Notes: generated by a model from the sequence alone, not told the origin. Shown: positions 24,754-51,261, numbered from the stretch's first letter. The stretch: 64,000 nt of DNA from Bacteroidetes bacterium 46-16 (GCA_001897835.1 MKUN01000028.1:248001-312000); one strand, 5' to 3'. Translations and numbers: made by a program.

Positions 24754-25011
24754 ATGGATGCCAAGATAACGATGAGTTTTGATGCTGCAGTAATAAACAA
24801 GGCCAAGGAGTATGCCGAAAGTCACGGCATGAGCCTGAGCCGCCTTACCGAGGTTTTACTTCGTAAGGTAGTGGCTGGTGATTACCGCAATATAGAAGAT
24901 ATGCCGGTAGCTGATTGGGTATCAATGGTGTCTGAAGGGGAAGTCGAGTATCATACCCGCTCCCGCAGCCGTAAAAAACTGAAAAACGAATATTACAATA
25001 ATAAGAAATGA
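24754..25011 (+). CDS. DUF6364-like ribbon-helix-helix antitoxin
   Basis: MDAKITMSFDAAVINKAKEYAESHGMSLSRLTEVLL; overlaps the PIN gene by 4 bp. Confidence 0.8.
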   Translation: MDAKITMSFDAAVINKAKEYAESHGMSLSRLTEVLLRKVVAGDYRNIEDMPVADWVSMVSEGEVEYHTRSRSRKKLKNEYYNNKK

Positions 25012-25424
25012 GGCTTTTCCTCGACGCTAACATTCTCGTTTCGGTACTGAATAAGGAATACCCCGTATATCCATACACGGCAAGAATATTGAGCCTTGCC
25101 GATAATAAAAGATACACCTTGGTAACCTCATCTATTTGCCTTGCCATAGCATATTACTTTGCTGAAAAGAAGCATGGCGATGTAAGTGCAAAACAGAAGA
25201 TAAGTATACTGCTACAGCATATGGATATAGCGGATTGTGGAAAAAAAGAAGCAGTGCTTGCTGCGCAGGATAAAAAAGTGCATGATTTTGAGGACGGCTT
25301 GCAGTATTATGCCGCAAGAAATTCAAAGTGTAGTTGTATCATTACAAGCGATATGGATGATTTTTATTTTTCTGAGCTGGATGTTTTTGAACCTGAAGTA
25401 TTTTTAAGGAAACATATAAAATAA
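25008..25424 (+). CDS. PIN-domain toxin (VapC-like)
   Basis: MRLFLDANILVSVL; DFEDGLQYYAA; IITSDMDDF. Confidence 0.88.
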   Translation: MRLFLDANILVSVLNKEYPVYPYTARILSLADNKRYTLVTSSICLAIAYYFAEKKHGDVSAKQKISILLQHMDIADCGKKEAVLAAQDKKVHDFEDGLQYYAARNSKCSCIITSDMDDFYFSELDVFEPEVFLRKHIK

Positions 25425-27181: not shown

Positions 27182-27921
27182 TAGTTGGCATCATCCCCGC
27201 ACGTTATGCATCTACCCGTTTCCCGGGTAAGCCGCTTATCGAAATAGAAGGGCGGAGTATGATACAGCGCGTATATGAGCAGGCTGCAAAGAGTTCATTC
27301 CTAAGGAAAGTAGTGGTAGCCACCGATGATGAAAGGATATTGCAGCACGTAAGGGCTTTTGGCGGAGAGGCGGTGATGACGGCAATGCACCATCCCAGCG
27401 GTACCGACCGTTGTTGGGATGCCTTGCAGCAGTTGCAGGAAGATTACAGTTATGTGATAAACATACAGGGAGATGAACCTTTCATATCACCTGGACAGGT
27501 AGACGAGCTGGCGATAGCATTACAGGATGGCAGTACAGAGCTGGCTACGCAGATGATCGCTGTTGGCAGCCATGAATTGCTATTTGATAAAGGGGAAGTG
27601 AAAATAGTGTTGAATGACAGGAACGAGGCGCTGTATTTCAGCCGTTCGGTCATCCCTTTTCTCAAGGGTATTGATGAAAAAGAATGGCACCTCCATCATA
27701 TTTACTACCGGCATGTAGGTATGTATGCATACAGGAGGGATGTACTGGAAGCAATAACCAAACTACCGGTATCCGCTCTTGAAAAAGCAGAATCGCTGGA
27801 GCAACTGCGCTGGCTGGAGCATGGGTTTAAGATAAAATGCGTGCCTACCAAATACGATAGCCATTGTATAGATACCCCGGAGGACATAGACAAAGTATTG
27901 GCCATGATAAGAAAAAAATAA
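27178..27921 (+). CDS. kdsB: CMP-Kdo synthetase (3-deoxy-manno-octulosonate cytidylyltransferase)
   Basis: IIPARYASTRFPGKPL; VINIQGDEPFI; 4-bp overlap with upstream gene. Confidence 0.95.
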   Translation: MIVGIIPARYASTRFPGKPLIEIEGRSMIQRVYEQAAKSSFLRKVVVATDDERILQHVRAFGGEAVMTAMHHPSGTDRCWDALQQLQEDYSYVINIQGDEPFISPGQVDELAIALQDGSTELATQMIAVGSHELLFDKGEVKIVLNDRNEALYFSRSVIPFLKGIDEKEWHLHHIYYRHVGMYAYRRDVLEAITKLPVSALEKAESLEQLRWLEHGFKIKCVPTKYDSHCIDTPEDIDKVLAMIRKK

Positions 27922-27948
27922 AAAATGCCCCGGTACCGGGGCATTTTT
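27921..27948. terminator. Bidirectional terminator between convergent genes
   Basis: aaaaatgccccggtaccggggcattttt palindrome. Confidence 0.9.
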
Positions 27949-27970
27949 TATTAGATATTATTTACGCTGT

Positions 27971-28903
27971 TTAGTTCTTTACAAATTTCAGTTTGTTGCT
28001 GCTAATGCCCTTGTCATCGGTCACTGTTACATAATAGATACCGGCGTTCAGCGATGCGATATTGATATGCGCATTTTTGTCTTCACAGTTTGTTATGTAC
28101 ACTTTCTGGCCGCTTATGTTGTAGATGGCTATAGTTTTCATACCCTCTACTTGACCGGCTATAGTGATAACACTGCCGGCAGGGTTAGGATATAATGAGT
28201 ACTGTCCATGCTTTGAAACAACTTCAGCTGTGCTGGTCGGGATGACTATGCTGTCACCGTCCACCGTTACATTATCAAACCTGTTGTTGCCGCTAGTGCC
28301 AGTGTTGGGTGTACCTAATTTTATACGCAATACCAGTTTAGCATTATTTTTTATCATGGTATCGGCAGCAGAGGACAGGTGCAGTGTTACCAGTTCCCAG
28401 TCATTTGATTGCGCAAAAGTGAAAGAAGTACTGTCGAGGCCGGTAGTCACCCATGTAGCACCGCTATCTACGCTGTAGTCATACATTTGACTTCCCGGGC
28501 CGTTGCTCGATTTCTGGGTGGCAAACTTGATCACGATATTTTCAAAACCATTGGTAGGCATGTATATAAGGCACTCCATGCTATCGTTAGGATTACGCAG
28601 CCTGATGCCCTCATGTATACCGCCGGGCGTATCGGCACCCATTCTCACGTTCAGCGTGGTATCTCCCGGATCAAAGTTGTCCACATAGCCGGTATCGGCA
28701 CCGGCACCGGGCACAGCCTGGTTAACGATCATAGCACCGGCAACAATAGAATAGTCAGGTACCAGGTTGTTAAGATGGTCGCCGCTCACGGTGTCATTAT
28801 TAAAGTGCCAGTAATGGACCAAAGTTTGTCCCTTCACATTTTGGGTCAGGCAAATTGCGATAGCAATAAAGGATAATAATAATTGTACATTTTTTTTCAT
28901 CAT
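27971..28903 (-). CDS. Secreted protein with T9SS type A sorting domain
   Basis: Signal peptide; C-terminal YSLYPNPAGSVITIAGQVEGMKTIAIYNISGQKVY. Confidence 0.85.
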   Translation of the reverse strand: MMKKNVQLLLSFIAIAICLTQNVKGQTLVHYWHFNNDTVSGDHLNNLVPDYSIVAGAMIVNQAVPGAGADTGYVDNFDPGDTTLNVRMGADTPGGIHEGIRLRNPNDSMECLIYMPTNGFENIVIKFATQKSSNGPGSQMYDYSVDSGATWVTTGLDSTSFTFAQSNDWELVTLHLSSAADTMIKNNAKLVLRIKLGTPNTGTSGNNRFDNVTVDGDSIVIPTSTAEVVSKHGQYSLYPNPAGSVITIAGQVEGMKTIAIYNISGQKVYITNCEDKNAHINIASLNAGIYYVTVTDDKGISSNKLKFVKN

Positions 28904-29154
28904 GTATTTTTTTTATTCACTGCAAAGGAACGCCGCTACAGTATTAACCACAGTATTGGCTACATTATTTTAATGTTAATTGTTAGCTGTTGGACTGATA
29001 GCCATTTTTTTATGCAAGTGTATATATTGTAATTTAAAAACAAGGTCGTTGATGTAAAATATATACGCCAGGCGAAGAAGCTGTATGATTGTAGCGTCTA
29101 AAATGCATTGATACTTTCCCGTTTCACTTTATTATTGAGAAGGAGTACTTTTAT

Positions 29155-30228
29155 ATGGTAGCGTATTCAGCAAGTAAATCTGACACCATCATGAATGAAG
29201 TATTGATCAAAGCCGTATTTACCAAAATGGCTGAGTATAAACCTGCCCTGCAAAAGTACCTCATAACAGACGATGATGAGGAGGAAGAAATAGATACAAG
29301 AATACTCGGCGACCTGGTCATTAAGAATCTCCCCTGGCCCATAGGGGTGGAACTGAGGCGGCTTTTGTCAGGTTCCATGCGCCAGCTCGACCGGGCCCGC
29401 CTCGACCAGTTGTTCAAGACCATAGAGCGTACCATGCAATTCCTCTCCTTTGTACTGGTAGCCCAGCTTTGGGAAGAGTGCATAAAAAAGCAAATAACCC
29501 TTTCCGATGATTTTGTCAACCAGTTCCGCAACAGGTTTACCGTGCTTACGATGGGTAACTATACCTGGCTGATAAGGGGTATCTGCAAAGTCTTCTCTGA
29601 GAACAATACCGACCATTTTATTATAGAAAAGAAAGATATTTTCAATAAAAAGTTTTTCGATATGCTCGATTTCTGGGTGCCCGAACGCAATGATATCGGG
29701 CATTACCAGATAAACCTCACCCAGGACGAGATAGAGCGACGCTGCGTGGAGTACGAAGAAAAATTGAAACTGATACTGGAGGCCATAGCATTTTTTGCCC
29801 GCTATAAACTGGTGACTGTGCGCCAGATAAGCGTGATGAAGCAGAAACACCGTGAGGCTACTTTCAATCACTTTTTCGACCTGCTCAACAGCTCCGATTC
29901 AGATTTTAAAAGCACAGAGATACAGCACGATGTATATGTGGACAGTAATGCCGTGCTGGTGATGAAGGATTTTAAAAGCCCCAACGAATTTCTTAATCTT
30001 TCACCGCTTGTGATAGATACACGAACCGAGATCATTGACAGTAAAGATAAATTCAGCATAAAGAAAGATATATTCCTGTTCACCAAATTCCAGAACGATA
30101 AGATATTTTATGTAGGGACAGAGGTGACCAGCAAATGCGACCTCTCGTACCTCAGCAGTTACAAAGACCTTGTTGAGCAGTATAAAGAGCTGGCCACCAC
30201 TATTGAACAATCACGTAACCCCGCATGA
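29155..30228 (+). CDS. Hypothetical protein with HEPN-like RNxxxH motif
   Basis: All-helical N-terminal half with PERNDIGHY (RNDIGH at 29686-29703); adjacent to nSTAND gene. Confidence 0.55.
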   Translation: MVAYSASKSDTIMNEVLIKAVFTKMAEYKPALQKYLITDDDEEEEIDTRILGDLVIKNLPWPIGVELRRLLSGSMRQLDRARLDQLFKTIERTMQFLSFVLVAQLWEECIKKQITLSDDFVNQFRNRFTVLTMGNYTWLIRGICKVFSENNTDHFIIEKKDIFNKKFFDMLDFWVPERNDIGHYQINLTQDEIERRCVEYEEKLKLILEAIAFFARYKLVTVRQISVMKQKHREATFNHFFDLLNSSDSDFKSTEIQHDVYVDSNAVLVMKDFKSPNEFLNLSPLVIDTRTEIIDSKDKFSIKKDIFLFTKFQNDKIFYVGTEVTSKCDLSYLSSYKDLVEQYKELATTIEQSRNPA

Positions 30229-30238
30229 GACCAGGCTT

Positions 30239-33082
30239 ATGTTAAAGACACCTTTTAAATTTCTTGATTCTTACACCAGCGATGATAAGGACATCTTTTT
30301 CGGGCGCGAGAAGGAAGTGGAGGAGTTGTATTATAAGATATTCGATGGCGACCTGCTTATTGTTTACGGTTCCAGCGGCACCGGCAAAACCTCGCTGATA
30401 CAATGCGGCCTTGCCGGCAAGTTTGAGGATGCCGACTGGATGCCCGTTATTATACGCAGGGCCGGCAATATTAATGAGTCGATTAGGAAAACACTCCGTA
30501 ATATTGCGATTACCCCCCTTAAAGAAAAGAATACGCTTGCACAGGATGTACAGTCCATATACCTCGATTACTTCAAGCCGGTATTCCTGCTGTTCGACCA
30601 GTTTGAAGAACTCTTCATTTTTGGTAGCGATGAGGAAATAGAACAGTTTGTTGACTCTTTAAAGGAGTGCCTTGAGGCAAAGCAGAGCTGCAAATTCATT
30701 TTCGTCATTCGCGGTGAGTACCTGGAGCATATATCCCGATTTGAGGATAAGATACCGGAGTTCTTCAATAACCGTATGCGTATAGAACGCATGACCCGCC
30801 GCAATGCCGAAAGAGTGATCACCGAGCCTTGTAAACTGTTCAATATAGAGGTTGCCGATGGGTTCCCGTCTAAAGTGCTCGAGCGTCTCGGCCATGATAA
30901 AACTGCCTCTATAGAGCTTACCTATTTGCAGGTGTACCTCGATAAGTTATACAAGAAGGCAGCCACAAAAGACCCTGGTCATATTGTTTTTGACGATTCT
31001 TTATTGGAAGAGTCAGGACGGATAGATGATGTGCTTTCGGAATTTCTTGATGAGCAGATAGCCCGCACGGAGAACCCTGAAGATGCCCTCACGATCCTGA
31101 AATCATTTGTGTCCAATGAGGGTACGAAGAAACAAATGTCGGCCGGTGATGTATCGGATTTTATTAAAACGCTGGGCAAAAAGCTGCCTGGTGAGACCAT
31201 TGAAAAATACCTGCGCCAGTTCGTAGATCTGCGCATCCTTAAAGATAAAGACGACAACAATAAGTATGAGCTGCGCCACGATTCGCTGGCAGCAAAGATA
31301 TTTGAGCAGATAAGCTATTCAGAAAAGGAAATGCTGGAGGTGCGCCAGTTCATCATCAATCGTTATAACGATTATGAAAAACGTGGCACTCATTTACAGG
31401 AATCGGATATACAATATATACTGCCCTATGAGAACAAAATGTTCCTCAACGAGGAGCAAAAGGCTTTTGTGGAAGAGAGTATCCGCAGTGCAAAAGCGAA
31501 GAAGAACCGCAGGCGTAATGTATTTATAGTGGGTGCCACCCTTTTGCTGGTCACCCTTACAGGTTTCTCCATATTTGCCATGAAGCAGCGCGATGCGGCC
31601 CTTGCGCAAAAACGTATCGCAGAGCAAAAAACGAGAGAGGCCCTTAACCAGAAGGAACTGGCTGAAAAAGCCAAAGACCTGTCCCTAAAGGCCTCCCAAC
31701 AGGCGCTCGATGCCAAATCTTATGCAGAACTACAGTCTAATATAGCGGTAGAGCAGAAAAAACTCGCCCAGCAACAGGCCATGAAGGCGCAGGAACAATC
31801 GGAAATCGCCAACCAGCAAAAGAGCATTGCAGAAGAACAAACTGCAATGGCCACACAGGAAAAGAATAAAGCTGACGAAGAAAAAGAAAAAGCGGAAAAG
31901 GCCCAGACCGAGGCCAACCGCCTTCGCCTGCTGGCGCTCAGCCAGAATGTAGCTTTTAAATCCTTGCAATTGAAGAATGAGCCGCAGTTGGCTGCGTTGC
32001 TCAGTACCGAAGCCTACAACCTTGCACAGGAGAACGGCGGCAATATACAGGATGCACAGCTTTACGCATCATTATACCAGTCGCTAAAGAATTTTGATCC
32101 TGCCAATTATCCCAATACGATACAGGGCCCCGCCGAAATACTGGCAATGAATACATCGCCCGATGGCAACACTATGGTACTATATGCCAATGGCAGCATA
32201 GCATATTATACCGGCGATGGTGCAGCACCTGTAAAAACGGTCCCGGTAAAAGGTCCCGTCATTAACACGGGTTACATAAGCAGCAATGGCAAGTATGTAT
32301 TGACCGCCTATGAAGACAATTCGGCCAAAGTGTGGAATATGGCTGATGGTGGGGCTGGTTCTCCGCTGATGAAAGGTCACACCGGGCTGATACGGGCCGC
32401 AGCGTTTAGTGCTGATGGCAGTACCCTGGTAACAGGTGGCCGCGATAGCCTGGTGCTTGTGTGGGACGACTATAAAATGACCAAAAAAATAAAATATCCC
32501 TCGCGGGTTCGCTCGGTAGCTATAAGTAATAATAAAAAGAAGATACTTGTAGGCTGCGAGGATGGTATTGTATATGAGAATGAACTGGGCAGCAACGACA
32601 GGGGTATTCTTACCTCCTATACAGGGGCCCGTGTTCAAAACGTTATGTACAGCAGCAATGGTAAATATATGATCACTGCTGCGTCCAATGGCGAGATGAG
32701 CATTTTCTCTTCGGCAGGTAAATTGCTGAAGAACATAGCCGGTAGCAGCAGTGCCGATCATATTGTGGCTGATGATGCTACAGGCCTGCTAGTTGAAGCT
32801 GCTGCCAACCGCAGGGTACATATTTACGATCTCAACGAGCTGTCTGCCAAGCCCATCGAGCTTGCTGACATCAATAGCTTTATCAGGGATATTGCCCTGT
32901 CGCCTGCCGGTATAGTTTCAGTAGGCATGGCGAACAACAACATCAGGCAATATTCGGTCAAGACTCCTGTTATACAAAAGAAACTTGCCGGGCACATCCG
33001 GCGCAATATGTCGGCTGACGAATGGAATACCTATGTAGGAAAGGACGTGCCTTACCGCAAGATCAATACAAGTTTACCTTAA
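30239..33082 (+). CDS. nSTAND NTPase with TM helix, coiled coil and C-terminal WD40-like repeats
   Basis: FFGREKEVEELY...VYGSSGTGKTSLIQCGL, LLFDQFEELF; TM VFIVGATLLLVTLTGFSIFAM; Ala/Gln/Lys coiled coil; WD40-like blades. Confidence 0.88.
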   Translation: MLKTPFKFLDSYTSDDKDIFFGREKEVEELYYKIFDGDLLIVYGSSGTGKTSLIQCGLAGKFEDADWMPVIIRRAGNINESIRKTLRNIAITPLKEKNTLAQDVQSIYLDYFKPVFLLFDQFEELFIFGSDEEIEQFVDSLKECLEAKQSCKFIFVIRGEYLEHISRFEDKIPEFFNNRMRIERMTRRNAERVITEPCKLFNIEVADGFPSKVLERLGHDKTASIELTYLQVYLDKLYKKAATKDPGHIVFDDSLLEESGRIDDVLSEFLDEQIARTENPEDALTILKSFVSNEGTKKQMSAGDVSDFIKTLGKKLPGETIEKYLRQFVDLRILKDKDDNNKYELRHDSLAAKIFEQISYSEKEMLEVRQFIINRYNDYEKRGTHLQESDIQYILPYENKMFLNEEQKAFVEESIRSAKAKKNRRRNVFIVGATLLLVTLTGFSIFAMKQRDAALAQKRIAEQKTREALNQKELAEKAKDLSLKASQQALDAKSYAELQSNIAVEQKKLAQQQAMKAQEQSEIANQQKSIAEEQTAMATQEKNKADEEKEKAEKAQTEANRLRLLALSQNVAFKSLQLKNEPQLAALLSTEAYNLAQENGGNIQDAQLYASLYQSLKNFDPANYPNTIQGPAEILAMNTSPDGNTMVLYANGSIAYYTGDGAAPVKTVPVKGPVINTGYISSNGKYVLTAYEDNSAKVWNMADGGAGSPLMKGHTGLIRAAAFSADGSTLVTGGRDSLVLVWDDYKMTKKIKYPSRVRSVAISNNKKKILVGCEDGIVYENELGSNDRGILTSYTGARVQNVMYSSNGKYMITAASNGEMSIFSSAGKLLKNIAGSSSADHIVADDATGLLVEAAANRRVHIYDLNELSAKPIELADINSFIRDIALSPAGIVSVGMANNNIRQYSVKTPVIQKKLAGHIRRNMSADEWNTYVGKDVPYRKINTSLP

Positions 33083-33094
33083 TTAAGCATTAGC

Positions 33095-34132
33095 ATGAGA
33101 TATACCAGCTCATTTATTATTGGCCTTTTGTTCTGTATGTGCAGCAATACATCCAGTGCACAGACAGATACCTGTATCCTGCACCTTAAGGATGCAGGTA
33201 ACAAATATGAACAGGGTAATTTTGATGATGCTATTACGCTGCTTAAAAGCACTATAGAACATTGCCAGTTGGCTAAAGATGATGAGATACAGGCCAGCAA
33301 GATCCTCATACTTTGTTATCAAAATATAGATAACCTTGAAGCCGCAGATAGAACAGCAAGGGCAGTACTTAAGCTCGACCCCAATTACCGTCCCGATAAA
33401 TTTAAAGATGATGCATCGCTCATAAAGCTATTTGATAAATACCAGCCGCAACCAACTTTTTCAATCGGCCTCAGTGGTGGTATCAATATGCCATTCGTTA
33501 AAACAATAAATAAGTATTCCATTGTTCATCCTGATGCCGATCCGCAGACAAATTATAAGAACAGGTATAACCTCCAGCTTGGTTTGCAAATGGAGAAAAG
33601 GATCTACAAGGGCTTTTGGCTGCAACTGGGTTATCGTTACCGGGTAACAAAATATGAGCATGAGTTATTGGACGTGAACAATACTACTGTTGATTACGTT
33701 GAAAAACTGACCTATTCAGATATACCGCTTTCACTTAAGTATTACTTCGGCTCCGCTGCTATAGTGCCTTACGTGCAGGCAGGTGCTGAAGCGGCGCTCT
33801 TAGCCGGTGCACTTAGCACCACTACCCGCGACGATCAGAAGGATATCATCAACCGTACAGCCCTTCGCAACAAGTTTTCTGTAGGCTTCTCAGCTGGGGC
33901 AGGGGCTGCTTACAGGCTCAGGGCATTGCTCCTGTTTGCCGATCTCCGCTATACCTATTTTTCCCGCAGGGTAAATAAAAACGGTACTCGTTATGATGAT
34001 CCTGTTAACCTCTATAAGTATTATTATATCGATGACGATTTCAGGATGGATAACCTGCAGCTTAATGTAGGCGTATCGCTTATACTTTCTTATAAGAATA
34101 TGAAGGTAGGTAAAGACAAACGACACAACTGA
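33095..34132 (+). CDS. Outer-membrane beta-barrel protein with N-terminal TPR-like region (PorT-like)
   Basis: Signal peptide; TPR-like N terminus; amphipathic strands FSIGLSGGINMPF...GFSAGAGAAYRL. Confidence 0.7.
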   Translation: MRYTSSFIIGLLFCMCSNTSSAQTDTCILHLKDAGNKYEQGNFDDAITLLKSTIEHCQLAKDDEIQASKILILCYQNIDNLEAADRTARAVLKLDPNYRPDKFKDDASLIKLFDKYQPQPTFSIGLSGGINMPFVKTINKYSIVHPDADPQTNYKNRYNLQLGLQMEKRIYKGFWLQLGYRYRVTKYEHELLDVNNTTVDYVEKLTYSDIPLSLKYYFGSAAIVPYVQAGAEAALLAGALSTTTRDDQKDIINRTALRNKFSVGFSAGAGAAYRLRALLLFADLRYTYFSRRVNKNGTRYDDPVNLYKYYYIDDDFRMDNLQLNVGVSLILSYKNMKVGKDKRHN

Positions 34133-35484
34133 TGAGTTTTTTGAAGAACATAGTATTACTTGTATGCGTTGCGGCCACGGTCTGTTCCTGTAAAAAGAGC
34201 AATACCACACCGCAGGGCAATACGTTTATAAAAGTTTTCGAGGAGCCTACTTTGGCCTTTAATGCCGGGCCTAATTCTTTCCAGTCCAATACCGGGGATG
34301 TAGTAAGCGATGATGCGGGAAATTATTATTGCTGGTATTACGAGCAAAATACGGCAGCGGGCGGATGGGCTACAAAGCTGGCCATACTTAAAACAGACCC
34401 TAATGGCAATAAGCTCTGGAGCCGGGTTTATTTCAGTTTTCACGTAGCTGCTTATTCCTGGAACAGGAGAGCGATCATGTATAACAACTTCATTTGCGAC
34501 GGACAATCGCTTTATATCGCCGGTACCAATACCGATGGTGCACCTTATATGCTTAAGTTTAATTCCGATGGTGATGTGATTGCCCAAATGCCTTTGGATA
34601 TCATACCGCAGGGTCGAACATTGCATGCTTTATACAATTTATGGCCCTTGAGCAATGGTAACTTTATGATCAATGGCACTTACTCCATAGCTACAGGGCC
34701 AACCAAGGGCGATGATGGGGGAACAATACCCTTCGTTGCTATGATATCTCCTTCCGGCGGCATATTATGGCAAAATAATGAACTTCCTTTTCCGCTGCAG
34801 GATACCAATGCTGATAATGCTACTATCGAAGGTATGGCCGAAATGCCCGATGGAGGCTATATCTTCTCAGGTACAGGTGCCTACTCTACAGATAACACTA
34901 CTTTGTCTGGCAAAAAGACCACTTTCATCAATGTATATAAATTGAACTCAGGTGGGCAACTGGAATATAACAAGACCTTGTATGGCGGGCAATATATCGA
35001 GACCCGTGGTTCATCAACTACTTTCGCTTTGCTTACCGATCATGATCTGCAATTCTCACAGGTGTTAATGATGCCTTCGGGTGATCCCCTGCTTATCATG
35101 GCTATCCTGCAAAACAATTCCGGCGATTTTTCGATACGGCTCATGAAGCTGGATGCTTCTTCCGGTTCACCGGTCGATTCTTCCGATATCAATGGAGGCG
35201 ATGCCCTGTATTTGCGCAAAGCCATCAACAGGTCCGATGGCAACATATTGATCAATGCCTGCACAAGGTTTAATACTACCACGCAGTCTAAGCTATATAC
35301 AGTGGGTTCAGATCTGCATATTATGAATACAGCAACGTTTTCTTTCCCTAATGAATCTATTTATACATCCGGGCTTTGCGAGGTGGGAGGCGATCACTAC
35401 CTGCTCCCGGGTACGATACAGACGTTCGGAAATGATTCCAGCAGTTTAATGATGATCAAAACGAATGGCAATGGGCAATATTAA
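34132..35484 (+). CDS. Hypothetical lipoprotein
   Basis: Lipobox VCSCKKSNT; overlaps the neighbouring genes. Confidence 0.7.
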   Translation: MSFLKNIVLLVCVAATVCSCKKSNTTPQGNTFIKVFEEPTLAFNAGPNSFQSNTGDVVSDDAGNYYCWYYEQNTAAGGWATKLAILKTDPNGNKLWSRVYFSFHVAAYSWNRRAIMYNNFICDGQSLYIAGTNTDGAPYMLKFNSDGDVIAQMPLDIIPQGRTLHALYNLWPLSNGNFMINGTYSIATGPTKGDDGGTIPFVAMISPSGGILWQNNELPFPLQDTNADNATIEGMAEMPDGGYIFSGTGAYSTDNTTLSGKKTTFINVYKLNSGGQLEYNKTLYGGQYIETRGSSTTFALLTDHDLQFSQVLMMPSGDPLLIMAILQNNSGDFSIRLMKLDASSGSPVDSSDINGGDALYLRKAINRSDGNILINACTRFNTTTQSKLYTVGSDLHIMNTATFSFPNESIYTSGLCEVGGDHYLLPGTIQTFGNDSSSLMMIKTNGNGQY

Positions 35485-36742
35485 AGGGGCTATATGTTTG
35501 GTATGCCTGTTATGTTTCTTTTCCTGCAAAAAGAGCACGCCGGACACTTATACCAAATTCAAAAGTTACCGTATAGGTTACGAGCTTGCTTCAGCTATAC
35601 CATCTATACAGCTAAGCGATGGAAGTTTTATAACGGCTACACTTGATGAACATGGTGCCTGCTTGATCATCAGGCTTGATGCAAAAGGTAATAAGGTATG
35701 GGAAAGGAATATTTCAGAATCCTCGCTGCATCCTACCTGCCTTACAGCTACCACAGATGGTAATTTTGTACTTTCTGGTTATAACACGGTGAGCCGTAGC
35801 AGCCTTTTTGCTACCATGTACAGCCCGGGTAATGATAGCCTTTGGCATGTCGACTACGATTTTCAGCCGGGTAATGCAAATAATATGGCGGCTTGCAATG
35901 CCGCTGATGGCAATATCCTTTTCAGCATTGGTGCCAGCAGCAACGATATGGCCAACCCGGCTACTTTTATATTGAAAGTGAACCGTGCCGATGGCAGCCT
36001 GCAGTATATGAAGCCATTACAGGGTATTCCGGATAGCGTCAGGTTTCAGCCCCTGAGTATGGTTGCCCGCAATAATGCGGTCTATATTACAGGCTCCTAT
36101 TTTGTGGCACAACAAATGGGGCCGCTGCTCAATGGCAGCTCATGCACTGTGGCTACTAACGAAAATGGCGACTCGCTATGGCAGGTCACGAAACCACCGG
36201 TTTTGAATGATGTAGTTGCGGGTATTTACAATATTGGGGAATCCATAGCATGTTCCGCAGATGCGGGGTCAGTTGTTGCAGGTTATGTTTCCGGTCCCTT
36301 TGGCTACCGGGCACTCAATATTCTGCCCAATTCCATCAATCAGGTGTGCGGCGCTGATATAGTCCTTGAAGCATACGATGCGGCAACAGGTTACCGCTCC
36401 GATACGGCCTCTTTTACTTTCGAAGATCAGTCATCCCTGACCATAATAAAAAATGCAACGGATGGTGGCTATATCCTTGCCGCCACCGATAACTTTTTCC
36501 TTGCCAATGAGAATTCCACTACCCATATTGCACTAGCCAAAACCGATGCACATTTTAATGTCAACTGGCAAAGGACCATCAACCTGCCCGATGCGTCTAC
36601 CATGCCATTAGGCATATTCCCGGTCGACAATGGTTATGTGATCATTGCTTATGTTATTTCCGACCCTAAGAACGATGGCAGTTATTCCGATCTGGTATTC
36701 CTGAAGACCGATATGAACGGCAACCTTGTTGATGGCAACTAA
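35465..36742 (+). CDS. Hypothetical lipoprotein, related in layout to the preceding gene
   Basis: Lipobox CFFSCKKSTPD; similar beta-rich layout (I-L-K-T-D-x-N-G-N motifs); overlaps the upstream ORF by 20 bp. Confidence 0.65.
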   Translation: MAMGNIKGAICLVCLLCFFSCKKSTPDTYTKFKSYRIGYELASAIPSIQLSDGSFITATLDEHGACLIIRLDAKGNKVWERNISESSLHPTCLTATTDGNFVLSGYNTVSRSSLFATMYSPGNDSLWHVDYDFQPGNANNMAACNAADGNILFSIGASSNDMANPATFILKVNRADGSLQYMKPLQGIPDSVRFQPLSMVARNNAVYITGSYFVAQQMGPLLNGSSCTVATNENGDSLWQVTKPPVLNDVVAGIYNIGESIACSADAGSVVAGYVSGPFGYRALNILPNSINQVCGADIVLEAYDAATGYRSDTASFTFEDQSSLTIIKNATDGGYILAATDNFFLANENSTTHIALAKTDAHFNVNWQRTINLPDASTMPLGIFPVDNGYVIIAYVISDPKNDGSYSDLVFLKTDMNGNLVDGN

Positions 36743-36791
36743 AAAGAGGGCTTTATGCCCCCTTTACTTCTTTTGATATTTATTTATCAAC

Positions 36792-38348
36792 TTACCATCC
36801 GGCTTTATCAACCCCGCCCTTTTTGAATCCTGCATCATGGGGCAGGTCTTCTTTTTTCAGGTAAGAGCGTGCTGCCAGGTAATATTCCTTGTATATACGT
36901 ATGGCAAATGGTATCAGTGTGATCATCAGCAGGGATGAGAACACGAACAGCCCGTAAGTCAGAATAGTATGATGTTCTAATGGGAAATTTATTTCAAATA
37001 CATGCGCCAGCATGCTCAGGAACTCGAACACTATTTCAGGTATCAGCAGCATAGCGATCATCACTTCCAGTATCCTGTCTTTTTTCTCACGTTTCTTTTC
37101 TCTTTCCTTCTCTTCTTCCTCCATATGTTCCTGCAGTATCCGGCTTATATCGGCAAGCTTATCTTTTATGTTGCTGAACATTTCGCCCAGTTTCAGGTTG
37201 TTCCTGCAAAAATCAAAGAAGTCATTGTGCTGGCTGAAGTAAGATACCTGCATAAAGAAGGTGCGCAGCTCTATTTTCGATAAGTTAGATGATGCTTTTA
37301 ACAGCTTTTCTTTCTTAGGTTGGCCTTCATCATAGAGGTAAGATAGCTGCTCGTCCATTTCTATGAGTGCAAGCCTTTGGTAATAGGCAAGGAAGTAGGT
37401 CCATATATAGCGGTTCTTCACCACAAGGTCATAGTCTTTCAGGAAAGCCGGTAATTTGTCGGCATCCTCGTTCACGATAACGGCACAGCCCTCTATCGAG
37501 GCGCCGAAGTGTATCTGCTCGAACATTTGTTCCGATTCTATGGCTTTATTGATATAAGCCCTGCCCGGTGTATAATTCAGGTTATATACATGCCTCAGCC
37601 TGAAGGAGGCTATTTGCAGTTCTTCCTCATCCAGCTTTTGCTCCAGTTGGGCGTAAGTGAACGCCTGCAGGCGGTTGGGCGATAAAATATTCACCTTGCC
37701 GGTTGGTATTTCCTGCATGAGGATATTCACCAGGGTATTCACATTCCAGTTGTGTTCTGTGCCTGCTTCGTTTTTGCCCCCGGTATAGAACTGGCTAAGC
37801 TTTTCGGCCAGCTTGTTTTCCTGCTCCTGCGCAGCAGGGTGTTCATTCCTTGCTATACTAAAGTCGCCGGAGTCGCCCCTGCCGAATACACGCAGCTTAT
37901 AATTCAGGTTGATCAGGTTCTCGAGCGTGTTGTCTTCCTTCATCAGCACAAAGCCGAATGATAATATACCTATCCCCGTCAGCGGGTTGTATAATATCCT
38001 CGGGCTCAGTATCGATTTATCTGTGCATAATTTGAACTGTATCGGCTTTTCTTTTTTATCATAGGTTTGCGATGGGCGGGATAATAATTGGGTAATGAGC
38101 CCCAACTTATCTTTTTGCGCATCACTTAGCTTGTTGCTGTCAAGTTCATAGCCCAGGCAGCACGATTCATCGGTTATCGCTGTATCGTCACCATTATTCT
38201 TAATGAAGAAATCCTGTACGTGGCGGAAGTAGAAATTCTTTTCAGGTTCCAGCCCCGACCGTTTCCACATAGAATCAGCCTTGTTCAGTTCTGTAGCTTC
38301 AGTTTTGAATGCATATAGGAAGAGTGAGAAAGAATCTGCCAGTTTCAT
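36792..38348 (-). CDS. Hypothetical membrane protein: large soluble region, charged coiled coil and two C-terminal TM helices
   Basis: HMEEEEKEREKKREKKDR then two hydrophobic segments near the C terminus. Confidence 0.65.
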   Translation of the reverse strand: MKLADSFSLFLYAFKTEATELNKADSMWKRSGLEPEKNFYFRHVQDFFIKNNGDDTAITDESCCLGYELDSNKLSDAQKDKLGLITQLLSRPSQTYDKKEKPIQFKLCTDKSILSPRILYNPLTGIGILSFGFVLMKEDNTLENLINLNYKLRVFGRGDSGDFSIARNEHPAAQEQENKLAEKLSQFYTGGKNEAGTEHNWNVNTLVNILMQEIPTGKVNILSPNRLQAFTYAQLEQKLDEEELQIASFRLRHVYNLNYTPGRAYINKAIESEQMFEQIHFGASIEGCAVIVNEDADKLPAFLKDYDLVVKNRYIWTYFLAYYQRLALIEMDEQLSYLYDEGQPKKEKLLKASSNLSKIELRTFFMQVSYFSQHNDFFDFCRNNLKLGEMFSNIKDKLADISRILQEHMEEEEKEREKKREKKDRILEVMIAMLLIPEIVFEFLSMLAHVFEINFPLEHHTILTYGLFVFSSLLMITLIPFAIRIYKEYYLAARSYLKKEDLPHDAGFKKGGVDKAGW

Positions 38349-38431
38349 TTAATATAATGCTGTAGTACAGGGGCTAATATAAGGCATATTGCCGATAACC
38401 CCGCCTTTACAGGCCATTGCTTACACACATT

Positions 38432-38462
38432 AAAAAAGCATGGTTTCAAACCATGCTTTTTT
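38432..38462. terminator. Hairpin terminator downstream of porV
   Basis: aaaaaagcatgg-tttcaaa-ccatgctttttt. Confidence 0.85.
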
Positions 38463-38487
38463 ATATCGTTATATTACCTGTTCTGTA

Positions 38488-39678
38488 TTATTGGTCGCCG
38501 CCTTCGCTCTTGTTTATTTTATCAAATTCAAACATCAGCGAGAAACGAAGTGTGTTCGATAATGGGTTGCGGTTGATACCCGATCCTGAGGGTACAAGGT
38601 AAGCAACATTCAGTGCAAAGACATTGTAGCGCACACCCAGGCCACAGGTGAAGTATTTGCGGTCACCCTTTGTTTTAGGCTCGTAGAAATAACCCGCACG
38701 TACGGCAAACTGGTTTTGATACCAGTATTCAAGGCCTGCAGATATGTCTATTTCTTTCAGCTCTTCGTTAAAACCGCCCGGTGCATCACCAAATGAGCCC
38801 AGCATACCTGCTACCACACCTTTGTCAGGATAATATTGATTGCCTGCGACATCAAATTGTGGGCTTGGTACCAGCAGCTTGTTAAAGTCAAGTGCAGCAG
38901 TGATCTTATTATAGGCATCGGCCTGGTACGTATAGGCAGCGCCTATGCCCAGGTTGATCGGTATAAAATCTTTGTGTGTTGAGTTGTAAGATATTTTTGA
39001 ACCCGCATTGGTAAGGGCAGCGCCTATGCTGATATTGGTCTTGCGGTCTTCTTCAAGCTCGGTGGTCTTGTTGAAATATACACCTATGTCAGCGCCAAAT
39101 GCATTCCCCGGTTTGTAATCGGTGCCTGCAGTAACGCTAAGACCGGTAATAATGGCTGAGTGTATATAACGCAGGCTTACCCCGGTTGACAAATATGGAG
39201 AAAGACGGCGGGAGTAACCTAAGTCGAAGGAATATTCGCGTGGCTTACCCGTACCAAGCGATTGTGCAAACTGGTCGGTATAATTGATATCACCAAGTGA
39301 AAAGTAGCGCATCGACATGCTGATGGCCTGGTTGTCATCCTGGCCGAATTTAGCATAGCCGGCAAGGTAAGCAAGGAATATATCCGGTACCAGGTCTTTC
39401 AGCCATGGGGTATAAGTAACAGATATACCATACTTTTTCTCTGCAAATGGTATTTTGCCCACATTCCAGTATTGCGCATTCGCGTCTGCTGTTGTGGCAA
39501 GTCCTACATCTCCCATCGCTCCTGCCCTTGCATCAGGCGATATTCTTAAAAAAGGTACTGCTGTGGTAATAGTATTCGTTGTGCCGTTCAGGTTCACATT
39601 CGAGCCTTGTGCATAACTTTTGCTGCACAATAGCCCCGTTATTATACTTATCCCAATAAAAGCAAAGCGTTTCGCCAT
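38488..39678 (-). CDS. porV: T9SS outer membrane protein PorV
   Basis: FLRISPDARAGAMGDVGLATTADANAQYWNVGKIPFA. Confidence 0.93.
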   Translation of the reverse strand: MAKRFAFIGISIITGLLCSKSYAQGSNVNLNGTTNTITTAVPFLRISPDARAGAMGDVGLATTADANAQYWNVGKIPFAEKKYGISVTYTPWLKDLVPDIFLAYLAGYAKFGQDDNQAISMSMRYFSLGDINYTDQFAQSLGTGKPREYSFDLGYSRRLSPYLSTGVSLRYIHSAIITGLSVTAGTDYKPGNAFGADIGVYFNKTTELEEDRKTNISIGAALTNAGSKISYNSTHKDFIPINLGIGAAYTYQADAYNKITAALDFNKLLVPSPQFDVAGNQYYPDKGVVAGMLGSFGDAPGGFNEELKEIDISAGLEYWYQNQFAVRAGYFYEPKTKGDRKYFTCGLGVRYNVFALNVAYLVPSGSGINRNPLSNTLRFSLMFEFDKINKSEGGDQ

Positions 39679-39776
39679 TATTATATTTATTTTAAAACTA
39701 TTTAAGGTCCCTGTTTTCGGTTTGCAATATTACGCCTTAATTCTCTAAAAATCAGGAACAACATTGCTTATTTATA

Positions 39777-42700
39777 TTAACGTAGCAATACCAGCTTTTG
39801 GTATGCACTGCTTTGTGCACCTGTTGCGGTAGCTATGTTCACGCGATACACATATACGCCCGCAGGCAGCTTGGCACCGCGGTCACTCGTTCCGTCCCAT
39901 GTTATTTCATTACTCCGGCTGTTAGTGGGGGTAAAGCTCTGCCTGATCTTCCGCACGGCCACACCTGCTGTGCTGTATATATTTATTTCCACATCCAGCG
40001 CCTCTCCGGGATGATTGTGCTCAAAGAAGAAATGAGTGACATCCTTAAAGGGGTTAGGGTAGTTGATAAGGTCCTGCACTTTTACAATAGCGCCGTCCAC
40101 CACTTCAAAGTTCACCACGCCCTCTCCCGAATTGTTGTTCACGTCCCATGCTTTTACTACTATGGTATGCTTGCCCACGCTCAGTCCGTTGAGCGGGAAG
40201 TACACATGCCCGCGTTGGTACGTATTAGGCTCTGTTTCATAATAGTCGTTCAGTATATAAGGCACTTCAATATCTCCGTCCATCACTGCCGTAAGGTCAT
40301 GGCCCACTGCATTGCCTGAAACATTGATGCCTATTTCGTCTTCCAGGCTCACATACAGCAGGGTATTAGGCCCGGTTATACCCCCGTCTTTGAACAGGCT
40401 GTCCCCTATGTAAGGCTTTACTATAGGTGCTACATTATCTGTCACAGGGTTGTCAGAATAACCGCCTATAGAAAAAGTAGTGTCTGCACCCGCAGCATCG
40501 GTGATGCCGTTTTCGGCATATGAGCTTAATTTGCCTTTGCCAAATTCATAGTTAATGTCCTTAGGCACGATAAAAGCATAGGAAAATTGCCCGTTCGTTA
40601 CAGTAGCCTTCCCCTTGTATATGATGTTATTCTGTGTTTGGAATGATTTATTACCATAGTAAGTGGTCACATTAGTGGTCCTGGGCTTGTCATAAAACGA
40701 CACATATAGCTTACCGTTAAAATCCGTCAGCACCTCGCCATTATCACCCCTTACGCTACCATAAACCATATAGGACCCAAGGGCGCTCAGGGTATCAACA
40801 ACTGATGATGAACTGCTGTTCTTTATAGAATCGGTAACCACAGTATATTGGGGGAAATCGGGTAGTAGTGCCGGGTCGCCTAAAAGAGCAAATTTCCTGA
40901 AGTTGATCAGTGTGCCCGCATCCTGTACCGTATGGTAGGTCTCATTCTTGCCAATACGGAATGCATCCCCGAAGCGGTACCATTTATTGTTGGGCAGGTG
41001 CGTGAATTGCGACCTCAGGAATGCTTCGTTCAATATCCTGTTTGAGTACTGGTACACTAATTGCGTAGTGGTGAGCCCTGCTATTGCACCGCCATTATGT
41101 TTTAATACCAGTGCCTCTCCCGCCGATACATACGATGGCTGGTCAAAGCGGCCAAAATCACATGTCGCGGTCACCATAAAGGGCAGATGATCGTAGTTGG
41201 TCCAGGCATTGTAATCATCAGAGGTTAATATTCGTTTCCCCGACCATACTGAAGTATTGCCATGACCGCTGTAATTCACAAAAAAGCAGCCTTTGTATAT
41301 CTGGTCGTTGATGATCTTATTCGCCTGCGGGCACCTGGCACCTCCCGGGCTCGATACCGTTGGCAGTGCATCGAGGAACACCTTCGTATGGTTATAAATG
41401 ATACTGCCGTTGGTTACCGTTTGGCACATAAGTTTACCATCATCCATATGGGGGCCTGCAGGGTCTTCATTATCAGCTACAACAAGGTCTTGCAGCCGCC
41501 AGGGGCCAAGCGATGCGGGGCTTTTATAATGTTTGATCTTTTCCACCATCGCCATCGCATCCGCTTCGCTGTTAACAGGGAAGCGTCCCATTCCCAGGTC
41601 CAGAGTATTGGCAATGCTGGTATTGCTGATATTTTCATTGTCGTCCAGGAAACCAAAAAAGTCATCATTGCAGAAACTGCTGATCAGGTAATGTGATTCT
41701 TCCGACTCGTATATCGGCACATAATCATTGTTGTTGGTCACCCTGTTTTTAGGGTCATAAGAGGCATCTCCTATCAGCAGCAGGTAGCGGGGCATTTGAG
41801 TAGTGTCATTGCCTGCCCGCACATAGAACATACGTGCAAAATCCCTTATGGCGCTTATGTCCTTTGAGCCTGATGAGAACTCATTATATACCTGTGGGGT
41901 CGTGGCTACAGCTACCCGCATATTATCCTGCGTGCGGTGAAAATCGGCTATTGCATTGGCCGCATCAAGGAAATCGGGATGCGTAACGATGATCAGGTCC
42001 ACCTGTCCCGCTCCGTGCAGGTTTTGATTGGCCACACCGCCTACATATTCCGGTACATTTAATTGGCTGCTGTTCAGGGCCGCGAATTCATGCAATGTAT
42101 CCGCATATTGCGAAAAGCTGTAAGTACTGCCCGATAGCGTACCGCTCATGCGTACAGGTTCCAGCGGGTTGGTCACATCCCACACTTGTGTATTGCTGCT
42201 GGCATTGGCTATCTGGTAACTGGCTTTGTTGCCTGCACCCGTACTGTTAAGATCGCGGAAGGTGAATTGTGAGGCATTAAAACTTAAACCGCGTCGTGTA
42301 TTGATTTCTATATAGTCAAGATACCCTTTGTCATCGCTGGAGTACGGCTGGTACGTAAGCGCTACTGTAGCAGTACCGCTAAGCGCCATATTGAAATCGG
42401 CATTTTTTTCCAGTATGGTATTCATTTCATCGGTCTGCCCGGCTTGCGAATCAAATACAATGGTACTTTTTAGATTGCCGTTCACAGTAACCTTAAAGGT
42501 ATTACTAAGTGCTGCAGAGCGTGAGCCCAGTACGATGTGGAATTTCGCGGAGTCAACCGTATTGCCCAGGTCAAAAGTAAAAGAGCCAGTGGTCGTAAAT
42601 CCAGGGCCGCTGCTATAGGCTTCGCCCCACCATTGTTTGCCGAAACCGCCCATATTCACAAGGTCCTGCTCATGCAGGGCATAGTCATTATAGCTGTTTA

Positions 42701-43535
42701 CGGTTACGTTGCTTTGCGGTATATCGCTTTGGTTCGCCACACGCTCCCCGGGGGCATCGAAATTGATGAAATAATAGGCCTTGTCGTCATACAGGTTGCC
42801 CTTATGACGAAAAACGGGATAGAAGGGGTCTTTGGTCCATGCCACAGGTCCCTGGGCGTAGAACACTACATAATCTCCCTGGTTAAAAGCATTGTCACCA
42901 CCGTCATTTACCCATATGGCATTTTCTGTCAGGCCATCGGGCCTGGCTATGGCATTGTTTTCCGGCAGCATATGGCCGCCATTCCCGAATACACGGATGT
43001 TGGCCGGGTTAATGTTGGCGGGGTTCACACCCATCTGGCTCAGCAGGTTGTAATCAATTTTATAAAAGCCGGTCTCGGAAACAGATATTTTATACCAGGT
43101 ACCACTTGCCAGCGGCGAGTTGGTGGCAGTGCCTTTGGCTGCTGTTTTGCTGTAGCTGAAAGGAGCTTCACCACCGGCATCCTCTTTGACAACAGCAGTA
43201 AAACTGCTGAGCTGCTTTACCTCCTGGCTACCGGTAGCTGCACTGTATGCAGGTACCGATATGAGGGCAAAGGGGCGTTTGCGGTCCTTACCCAGCGTTA
43301 CATTAAATTTTGAGGGGTCGGCAGGGATAGCATCCACAGGCAAAGCCACACCGCCGGTATAGCTTACATCCTCCAGGCTGATCTTGGGCATCCTGTAATG
43401 GTCAAGCCATATTTTTTTGGTTACATAGCCATCATGTATCTCGTCTTTTGATACGCCGAATGCATGGTCAGGTCCGGCCTTCGCTGAAAAGAAGGCTATG
43501 GATGATACCGCAATTGTTATTGCAACTTTTCTCAT
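39777..43535 (-). CDS. porU: T9SS sortase PorU (C25 peptidase family)
   Basis: VNYSGHGNTSVW, ATCDFGRFD; 1252 aa; adjacent porV and gldJ. Confidence 0.93.
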   Translation of the reverse strand: MRKVAITIAVSSIAFFSAKAGPDHAFGVSKDEIHDGYVTKKIWLDHYRMPKISLEDVSYTGGVALPVDAIPADPSKFNVTLGKDRKRPFALISVPAYSAATGSQEVKQLSSFTAVVKEDAGGEAPFSYSKTAAKGTATNSPLASGTWYKISVSETGFYKIDYNLLSQMGVNPANINPANIRVFGNGGHMLPENNAIARPDGLTENAIWVNDGGDNAFNQGDYVVFYAQGPVAWTKDPFYPVFRHKGNLYDDKAYYFINFDAPGERVANQSDIPQSNVTVNSYNDYALHEQDLVNMGGFGKQWWGEAYSSGPGFTTTGSFTFDLGNTVDSAKFHIVLGSRSAALSNTFKVTVNGNLKSTIVFDSQAGQTDEMNTILEKNADFNMALSGTATVALTYQPYSSDDKGYLDYIEINTRRGLSFNASQFTFRDLNSTGAGNKASYQIANASSNTQVWDVTNPLEPVRMSGTLSGSTYSFSQYADTLHEFAALNSSQLNVPEYVGGVANQNLHGAGQVDLIIVTHPDFLDAANAIADFHRTQDNMRVAVATTPQVYNEFSSGSKDISAIRDFARMFYVRAGNDTTQMPRYLLLIGDASYDPKNRVTNNNDYVPIYESEESHYLISSFCNDDFFGFLDDNENISNTSIANTLDLGMGRFPVNSEADAMAMVEKIKHYKSPASLGPWRLQDLVVADNEDPAGPHMDDGKLMCQTVTNGSIIYNHTKVFLDALPTVSSPGGARCPQANKIINDQIYKGCFFVNYSGHGNTSVWSGKRILTSDDYNAWTNYDHLPFMVTATCDFGRFDQPSYVSAGEALVLKHNGGAIAGLTTTQLVYQYSNRILNEAFLRSQFTHLPNNKWYRFGDAFRIGKNETYHTVQDAGTLINFRKFALLGDPALLPDFPQYTVVTDSIKNSSSSSVVDTLSALGSYMVYGSVRGDNGEVLTDFNGKLYVSFYDKPRTTNVTTYYGNKSFQTQNNIIYKGKATVTNGQFSYAFIVPKDINYEFGKGKLSSYAENGITDAAGADTTFSIGGYSDNPVTDNVAPIVKPYIGDSLFKDGGITGPNTLLYVSLEDEIGINVSGNAVGHDLTAVMDGDIEVPYILNDYYETEPNTYQRGHVYFPLNGLSVGKHTIVVKAWDVNNNSGEGVVNFEVVDGAIVKVQDLINYPNPFKDVTHFFFEHNHPGEALDVEINIYSTAGVAVRKIRQSFTPTNSRSNEITWDGTSDRGAKLPAGVYVYRVNIATATGAQSSAYQKLVLLR

Positions 43536-50140: not shown

Positions 50141-50191
50141 TGACCGCCACCCCTCCCTAAGTATGCCACTGCTCTAAGTGTACCCCTCCCC

Positions 50192-50239
50192 AAAGTGTGC
50201 CACACCTCTATAGGCTACCACGTTGGTGTGGCACACTTT
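50192..50239 (+). terminator. Perfect 15-bp inverted repeat downstream of the FtsX-family permease
   Basis: aaagtgtgccacacc (50192-50206) / ggtgtggcacacttt (50225-50239). Confidence 0.55.
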
Positions 50240-50343
50240 ATTTCACTTCACGCTCCATCATATTTGGTGTGGCACACTTTATTTCACTTCATGCTCCATC
50301 ATATTGGTGTGGCACACTTTACTTCGCTTCATTCCCTTTCATT
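50223..50343 (+). repeat. Three tandem ~40-41 bp repeats
   Basis: Units begin TTGGTGTGGCACACTTTA at 50223, 50264 and 50304, followed by TTTCACTTCAYGCTCCATCATA (third unit degenerate). Confidence 0.9.
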
Positions 50344-50385
50344 TTATTAATACCTGATAATCACTTCTTTAATAGCTAAAATAGC

Positions 50386-50438
50386 GGTATGATACCCCTG
50401 GAAACAGGGTATCATACCCTCAAAATCGGGGTATCATA
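50386..50438. repeat. Three copies of a near-palindromic GGTATGATACCC motif in alternating orientation
   Basis: ggtatgataccc (50386-50397), gggtatcatacc (50407-50418), ggggtatcata (50428-50438); the first two form a perfect 12-bp inverted repeat. Confidence 0.85.
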
Positions 50439-50754
50439 AAAATTCGATTTTCCCATTCCCCATCCCCGCCCGAACTTTGTTAGCTTATTAAGCTCCCCTC
50501 GGGTTGCTTTGCCCTTTTCCATGCTGGACAAGTGTGTTGTAAAGCCTTGTAAATCAAATAAAATGGAGTGCACGTTAAATTAAAGTACATTCTTTAACCT
50601 GAACTTGAATCCAATCCAAACTCATACCTTCGTTGCTTTTTTGCATGTGCGGATTGGGGTTGATTCGGAGAATATCATCAACTGGAAATTTCTACGTTTG
50701 TAGTCTCGCATTACGTTTTATCCCAAGATAATTGCATTCCTCGGATATAACCCT

Positions 50755-50949
50755 GTGCAGCACGAGCACAATGGAGGGCAAATACGAAATACCGGATTGA
50801 ACCATAGTTTGTCTCAGCAGGTCTTCGCAAATCTTAGCGGCCTCGATGAAAGCAGTATCTGCTTGTGCGAGAAAAATAATAAACAGCCGTTGCCGAGTAA
50901 GCGAAAAATCCTTGACGACCTATTGAAATCCAAAGAACTCTCAAAATGA
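50755..50949 (+). pseudogene. Possible XRE-type HTH remnant or small HTH protein
   Basis: LSQQVFANLSGLDESSICLCEKNNKQPLPSKRKILDDLL resembles an HTH_3 fragment. Confidence 0.4.
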
Positions 50950-51214: not shown

Positions 51215-51241
51215 AAAAATGGCCTTTGAGAGGCCATTTTT
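51215..51241 (-). terminator. Terminator downstream of 51262..52194
   Basis: aaaaatggcct-ttgag-aggccattttt. Confidence 0.8.
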
Positions 51242-51261
51242 TTAACTGTCACTTAGTGGAT

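What the first reader, a model, noticed from the sequence alone, without database searches (positions are those of the whole stretch)
29155..36742. HEPN-like protein / nSTAND-TM-WD40 / outer membrane protein / two-lipoprotein operon
Five tightly spaced plus-strand genes. Gene 1 has a HEPN-type RNxxxH motif (RNDIGH). Gene 2 is a cytoplasmic nSTAND NTPase, then TM, long coiled coil and WD40 blades probably on the periplasmic side. Gene 3 is a TPR/beta-barrel protein and genes 4-5 are lipoproteins. Inference: an envelope-spanning sensor coupling surface events to a cytoplasmic RNase-like effector, possibly for defence or envelope stress. I do not recognise it as a named system.
Basis: partly seen in the sequence, partly recalled or inferred. 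Interest (0 to 1): 0.7.

Follow-up and report, generated by a model that had tools for sequence, protein, structure and literature searches.

The report
Trans-envelope STAND signalling operon lacking effector
This is a five-gene bacterial operon that looks like a bacterial version of an animal or plant immune receptor stretched across the whole cell envelope: relatives pair the same two core genes with cell-death enzymes inside and receptors outside, but this copy has lost or never had the usual death enzyme.

Summary
The five-gene operon is real, and gene 2 is an intact nSTAND1-TM-coiled coil-WD40 protein. The HEPN reading of gene 1 is not supported. No library model matches it; RNxxxH occurs in 1 of 51 aligned copies; a profile comparison with HepT fails (probability 0.4%); and a confident AlphaFold model (pLDDT 89) has no significant fold match.

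Gene 1 is instead a lone copy of an undescribed ~330-residue "constant" domain. I found 50 relatives. In 49 it is joined to, or directly follows, a known cell-death or recruitment module: CHAT caspase-like protease (39), DUF4062 TIR-like (3), TIR (1) or EAD11 (6). Its next gene is this nSTAND1 family in every assessable locus. The window copy has no such module, and its genome has no CHAT or EAD11.

The surface-coupling idea gains support. Gene 3 begins with a secreted TPR head shared with eight proteins encoded after nSTAND1-TM or TM-coiled-coil genes. In four of them the head is fused to a TonB-dependent receptor. Other relatives have secreted WD40, LRR or FGE partners.

Best reading: an envelope-spanning STAND (NLR-like) receptor, as predicted for conflict systems, in an effector-less version at a variable chromosomal slot. 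Function is inferred; nothing was tested in cells.

The parts
29155..30228 (+). Gene 1: lone copy of an undescribed ~330-residue constant domain (helical residues 15-216, beta-rich 218-329, C-terminal helix); no N-terminal effector
   Evidence: No Pfam/NCBIfam/PADLOC match; 50 relatives; AlphaFold pLDDT 89.1, pTM 0.91
29680..29697 (+). Codons for RNDIGH (residues 176-181), the supposed HEPN motif; private to this copy
   Evidence: Alignment of 51 copies; HepT profile does not align here
30239..33082 (+). Gene 2: nSTAND1 NTPase, one TM helix (~428-446), coiled coil, WD40; N-terminus predicted in cytoplasm, WD40 in periplasm
   Evidence: Pfam nSTAND1 3.4e-38 and WD40 1.2e-17; Walker motifs and positive-inside charge; start codon by alignment
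33095..34132 (+). Gene 3: signal peptide + TPR-like head (~residues 1-109) + outer-membrane beta-barrel (~120-330)
   Evidence: OMP_b-brl_2 1e-14; head shared with proteins after nSTAND1-TM genes, leave-one-out E=2.3e-14
34132..35484 (+). Gene 4: probable lipoprotein (LLVCVAATVCSC signal), no known family
   Evidence: Sequence; Pfam nothing significant; weak partial hits only in family genomes
35465..36742 (+). Gene 5: probable lipoprotein, diverged paralogue of gene 4, weakly like SBBP beta-propeller lipoproteins
   Evidence: NCBIfam 3e-5, below cut-off; blastp with gene 4 5e-5

Best explanation
The operon encodes an envelope-spanning STAND (NLR-like) signalling device of the predicted conflict-system type. 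An outer-membrane/periplasmic receptor (gene 3, with genes 4-5 as possible surface accessories) meets the periplasmic coiled coil and WD40 of gene 2 through its TPR head. This releases or oligomerises the cytoplasmic nSTAND1 NTPase, which then acts on gene 1. In relatives the gene-1 domain is the constant adaptor that links the NTPase to a death enzyme (CHAT, TIR, DUF4062) or to a recruitment domain (EAD11). In this genome that module is missing, so gene 1 is either an adaptor whose effector is supplied in trans by an unrecognised protein, or a diverged copy with its own activity. Shown here by sequence: domain make-up, genes 1-2 linkage across loci, recurrence of the gene-3 head after nSTAND1-TM genes, absence of effector modules, variable chromosomal slot. 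Inferred: topology, physical contact, NTP-driven switching, defence function.
For: Every assessable copy of the gene-1 domain is immediately followed by this nSTAND1 family (50 of 50 counting the window). N-terminal or adjacent modules of the 50 relatives are CHAT 39, DUF4062-type 3, TIR 1, EAD11 6, unassigned 1. CHAT His and Cys motifs are kept in 37 of 38 fused copies; the exception lacks the CHAT N-terminus in the stretch fetched. Walker A is kept in 49/50 nSTAND1. The N side of the TM is more positive in 30/36. Gene 3's TPR head is found in 8 other proteins following nSTAND1-TM or TM-coiled-coil genes, with no non-member at E<=10; leave-one-out E is 1e-14 to 1e-30, and CHAT-type versus TonB-type heads align at 97% probability. 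Four of these heads carry a TonB plug and barrel. Where WD40 is not fused, a secreted WD40 follows in the next gene (L084, L121; L102), which places the WD40 in the periplasm. The gene after a TM-nSTAND1 has a signal peptide in 22/39 against 69/299 background pairs, p=3e-5, crude predictor. Own genome: no CHAT, no EAD11, one nSTAND1 over cut-off. In two congeners other genes fill the same slot. DUF4062 is an NADase in an abortive antiphage system (PMC13174449).
Against: No experiment. The window copy is a long, weakly placed branch with at most 26% identity to any relative, and no close relative was found, so selection on it could not be measured. Genes 4 and 5 have no syntenic relatives. The signal-peptide enrichment used a crude predictor, and one locus (L148) was chosen by gene-3 similarity. 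TPR heads are short. No PADLOC model matches genes 1 and 3-5, and gene 2 matches only weakly. A role in envelope homeostasis rather than defence is not excluded.
Confidence: 0.58

Rival explanations
1. One reading: gene 1 is a HEPN RNase switched on by the nSTAND1 sensor.
For: RNDIGH lies in a predicted helical bundle, followed by another helix. HepT toxins appear among the Foldseek matches with about the best target-normalised TM-scores (0.40-0.42), but E=0.8-1.8, not significant. R/K is kept at the R column in 36 of 51. This is the one copy without another effector.
Against: N in 1/51 and H in 2/51 copies; no HEPN model in Pfam matches any of 51 members and one PADLOC CARF_HEPN hit at E=0.02 stands alone; hhalign against 24 HepT proteins gives 0.4% probability and does not align the motif; Foldseek finds nothing at E<=0.001.
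Confidence: 0.1
2. The device reports envelope or nutrient state and controls physiology rather than defence, like FecA-FecR surface signalling, with gene 1 as a non-lethal output adaptor.
For: TonB-dependent receptor with an N-terminal periplasmic head next to a single-pass inner-membrane partner is the FecA-FecR plan (established knowledge); no death module in this copy.
Against: Nearly all relatives carry CHAT, TIR, DUF4062 or EAD11, typical of conflict systems; patchy distribution, 7 of 296 family genomes by single-sequence search.
Confidence: 0.2
3. The window copy is a decaying remnant of a CHAT-type system that lost its effector and is no longer functional.
For: The only one of 51 cores with neither a recognised nor a possible module attached or adjacent; long branch; no CHAT remnant upstream.
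Against: All five reading frames are intact and tightly coupled; Walker motifs and the domain's most conserved residues (E201, Y217, P284, D288) are kept.
Confidence: 0.12

Closest known systems
EAD/STAND conflict systems and the EACC1-caspase two-gene system (Kaur et al. 2020, PMC7159879; 2021, PMC8195603)
   Same: Constant component joined to variable effectors or EADs; caspase-like peptidase, STAND NTPase, membrane association; nSTAND1 was named there
   Different: EACC1 is a short TM domain; the constant domain here is a ~330-residue soluble fold with no Pfam match, followed by nSTAND1-TM with secreted/outer-membrane partners
DGR-diversified STAND sensors of multicellular bacteria (PMC10907252)
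   Same: nSTAND1/NACHT with variable C-terminal sensor domains, some predicted on the periplasmic side; FGE-type lectin folds
   Different: No diversity-generating retroelement was looked for or noticed here; outer-membrane receptor genes and the new constant domain are not described there in the passages read
Swarozyc (DUF4062 NADase antiphage system, PMC13174449)
   Same: DUF4062-type domains (weak or below-threshold Pfam matches) sit before the gene-1 domain in L009, L011, L047
   Different: Swarozyc senses the phage portal in the cytoplasm; the window copy has no DUF4062
FecA-FecR cell-surface signalling (established knowledge)
   Same: Outer-membrane receptor with periplasmic N-terminal signalling domain next to a single-pass inner-membrane protein
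   Different: Output would be a STAND NTPase and death module rather than a sigma factor; head is TPR-like, not an STN domain
Apaf-1 / TEP1-type STAND proteins with WD40 sensors
   Same: STAND NTPase plus WD40, caspase-like or TIR-like effector in relatives
   Different: A TM helix separates NTPase from WD40, so sensing is predicted in the periplasm

Membership tests
HEPN RNase | Recognisable HEPN profile or fold | tested here: not met
   No Pfam HEPN family in 51 members; hhalign to HepT 0.4%; Foldseek HepT E about 0.8-1.8
HEPN RNase | Conserved R-x4-6-H motif across the family | tested here: not met
   RNxxxH in 1/51 aligned copies
HEPN RNase | RNase activity | not testable with these tools
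   Needs biochemistry
nSTAND1 STAND NTPase (gene 2) | Pfam nSTAND1 over cut-off, Walker A and B | tested here: met
   132.7 bits against cut-off 27.1; GSSGTGKT and VFLLFDQFEE
EAD-type conflict system | Constant core with exchangeable effector/EAD in relatives | tested here: met
   CHAT 39, DUF4062 3, TIR 1, EAD11 6, unassigned 1 of 50 relatives
EAD-type conflict system | Effector or EAD in this copy | tested here: not met
   None in gene 1, none upstream, no CHAT or EAD11 in the genome
EACC1-caspase system | EACC1: single TM helix with short alpha+beta flanks, fused to or followed by caspase gene | tested here: not met
   Gene 1 has no TM segment and is a 357-residue soluble fold
Catalogued antiphage system | PADLOC model match and phage protection | tested here: not met
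   No strong match for any of the five genes; relatives give weak hits only, except a DUF4062 part at 8.6e-9 and an L042 nSTAND1 C-terminus at 1e-14; phage protection not testable
Gene 3 head family (SP-TPR head after nSTAND1-TM) | Profile match built without the window | tested here: met
   Leave-one-out E=2.3e-14, no outside ORF at E<=10

The most novel reading that the evidence does not exclude
Bacteroidota encode trans-envelope immune receptors: outer-membrane barrels or TonB receptors with a TPR signalling head pass a surface event (such as phage or toxin binding) through an inner-membrane nSTAND1 protein to a cytoplasmic CHAT, TIR or DUF4062 death effector held by a new constant domain. 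The window is a version whose effector is new or supplied in trans.
Probability: 0.4. Interest if true: 0.87.

Novelty: new variant of a known kind. Interest (0 to 1): 0.66.

Why it matters
Known bacterial STAND immune proteins such as Avs are understood as cytoplasmic sensors of phage proteins. A STAND protein wired through the inner membrane to an outer-membrane receptor would let a Gram-negative cell start a death response from its surface, and would define an unannotated adaptor domain shared by CHAT, TIR, DUF4062 and EAD11 systems. The claim can be tested directly with two or three genes in a laboratory strain.

Tried and rejected
HEPN: Pfam, PADLOC, PDB sequence search (only 3gwh, BglG-family antiterminator, E=0.004, taken as chance), two AlphaFold models with Foldseek against PDB and one model against BFVD, and hhalign to HepT; all negative or insignificant. 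Genome-contig scans with gene 1 and with gene 2 found no relatives; an alignment query had no usable conserved stretch. No gene-1 homologue in phage or plasmid collections. CHAT or DUF4062 remnant upstream of gene 1: none. Gene 4 homologues: only weak partial hits. Literature: no paper found that describes this gene-1 domain or a STAND/outer-membrane-receptor pair; the library lacks most subscription papers, so priority is not proven.

Full report
Observation. The window holds the five genes as described. The likely start of gene 2 is the ATG at 30239, because the conserved N-terminus PFKFLDxYxxxDxxFFGRxxE follows it. Spacings are +10, +12, ATGA overlap and -20, as expected of one operon. Gene 2 is nSTAND1 (3.4e-38) with WD40 repeats, one TM helix preceded by KKNRRR, a long coiled coil, and intact Walker motifs. 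Gene 3 is a signal peptide, a TPR-like head and a barrel (OMP_b-brl_2 1e-14). Genes 4 and 5 look like lipoproteins and are diverged paralogues.

HEPN test. Gene 1 matches no model in Pfam, NCBIfam or PADLOC. Fifty relatives were collected from family, phylum and order searches. In the alignment of 51 copies the N of RNxxxH is kept in 1 and the H in 2, while the R column is R or K in 36. No HEPN family matches any of the 51 in Pfam, and a single weak CARF_HEPN hit in PADLOC stands alone. hhalign against 24 HepT proteins gives 0.4% probability and does not pair the motifs. AlphaFold with 51 rows gives a confident model, pLDDT 89.1 and pTM 0.91: helices over 15-216, a beta-rich part and a C-terminal helix. 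Foldseek finds nothing at E<=0.001 in the PDB or among viral models. HepT entries appear at E about 0.8-1.8 with target TM-scores of 0.40-0.42, which is not significant but is the one hint left. The motif itself is in 3 of 43 window ORFs of 200 aa or more, gene 1 included, and in 1 of 118 ORFs of 300-420 aa in the loci searched together with this region. I regard HEPN as unlikely but not excluded.

What gene 1 is. The relatives show a ~330-residue domain that is almost always the C-terminal part of a larger protein or lies right behind a partner. CHAT is fused in 38 and separate in 1. A DUF4062-type domain is present in 3 (L047 fused; L009 and L011 in the gene before). TIR in the gene before occurs in 1 (L120). 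EAD11 is present in 6, separate in L101. One is unassigned (L119). The DUF4062 label rests on a weak Pfam hit for L009 and mutual similarity of the three, plus a PADLOC hit of L047 to PDC-S60. CHAT His and Cys motifs are kept in 37 of 38; the pattern used was simple and in a few rows the His match may be a different glycine-histidine. In every assessable locus the next gene is this nSTAND1 family (50 of 50 counting the window); the fifty-first copy ends at the edge of the stretch fetched. In several relatives (L083, L091, L097-L099, L112, L114, L115) the nSTAND1 protein is split into an NTPase and a separate HDxLA-TM(-WD40) protein, sometimes in two copies, as if one switch served several sensors. 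The window copy alone has no effector or EAD; its genome has no CHAT and no EAD11, and one nSTAND1 over the cut-off. No CHAT remnant lies upstream. On the tree it sits on the CHAT-bearing side with weak support and a long branch.

Envelope side. TM-containing nSTAND1 proteins of this set have the more positive side before the TM in 30 of 36, so the part after the TM is predicted periplasmic. Relatives without fused WD40 have a secreted WD40 protein in the next gene (L084, L121; L102), which supports a periplasmic WD40. With a crude signal-peptide predictor, the gene after a TM-nSTAND1 is exported in 22 of 39 cases against 69 of 299 background pairs (p=3e-5), and in 0 of 10 after nSTAND1 without TM; L148 was chosen by similarity to gene 3, so the figure is slightly biased. 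Gene 3's head is shared with eight proteins. Seven follow nSTAND1 or nSTAND1-type TM genes (in L149 with a broken reading in between) and one (L150) follows a TM-coiled-coil protein. Each head is found by a profile of the others at E 1e-14 to 1e-30 and no other ORF appears. In L042, L148, L149 and L150 the head is followed by TonB plug and TonB receptor barrel. Other exported partners carry LRR (L107), FGE-sulfatase (L101), PD40 (L094) or WD40. By eye many start with a TPR-like stretch between two cysteines. More distant nSTAND1-TM genes in the family are preceded by TIR genes (L039 TIR_2 9.4e-14; L038, L040, L042 by eye) or, by eye only, SIR2-like genes.

Genomic setting. In two congeners (G199, G248) the same flanks (kdsB-type gene and porV/porU) enclose three unrelated genes instead, so the operon, together with the CorA-like gene at 36792-38348, lies in a variable slot. 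Related systems are patchy: 7 of 296 family genomes by single-sequence search and 41 of 398 order genomes by profile, with up to five copies in one genome.

Mechanism. Most likely a surface or periplasmic event is passed by gene 3 (and perhaps genes 4-5) to the periplasmic part of gene 2, the nSTAND1 NTPase changes state and oligomerises, and the gene-1 domain passes this to an output. In relatives the output is protease or NADase type. Here the output is unknown: in trans, intrinsic to gene 1, or lost. Domain content, linkage and head homology are shown; topology, contacts, switching and defence are inferred.

Comparison. It follows the EAD principle of Kaur et al. (PMC7159879, PMC8195603) but is not EACC1, whose defining short TM domain is absent. 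It works like FecA-FecR surface signalling in layout. DUF4062 is a proven antiphage NADase (PMC13174449), which supports the death-effector reading of relatives. No paper found describes this constant domain or the STAND/outer-membrane pairing; the library is partial.

Noticed in passing
window 36792-38348 (-): Convergent neighbour with a weak PADLOC match to CorA-like proteins (5.7e-07), lying in the same variable slot as the operon.
   Followed up: partly
window 27921-38488 against L128 and L129: Variable chromosomal slot: in two congeners other genes (about 211, 410 and 182 aa) fill the site between kdsB-type gene and porV.
   Followed up: partly
L042, L149 (and L148 without TIR, L150 without STAND): nSTAND1-TM genes, in L042 and L149 after TIR-like genes, followed by a TPR-head TonB-dependent receptor; in L150 only a TM-coiled-coil gene precedes it. 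Possibly the clearest form of the trans-envelope design.
   Followed up: partly
L112, L114, L115 and L083/L091/L097/L098/L099: nSTAND1 split into a soluble NTPase and separate HDxLA-TM modules, sometimes two in a row: one switch with exchangeable membrane sensors.
   Followed up: no
window 25008-25424 (+): Small PIN-like (VapC-type, by eye) gene, probably a toxin-antitoxin pair, conserved in congeners.
   Followed up: no
window 38488-43535 (-): porV- and porU-like genes of type IX secretion next to the variable slot (identified by eye).
   Followed up: no
G000 (own genome): C43, C25, C19: Several HepT-like genes over the family cut-off in the same genome, a true HEPN set unrelated to gene 1.
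   Followed up: no
window 50000-62000: Stretch of lower G+C (0.35-0.41 against about 0.45), possibly acquired DNA.
   Followed up: no
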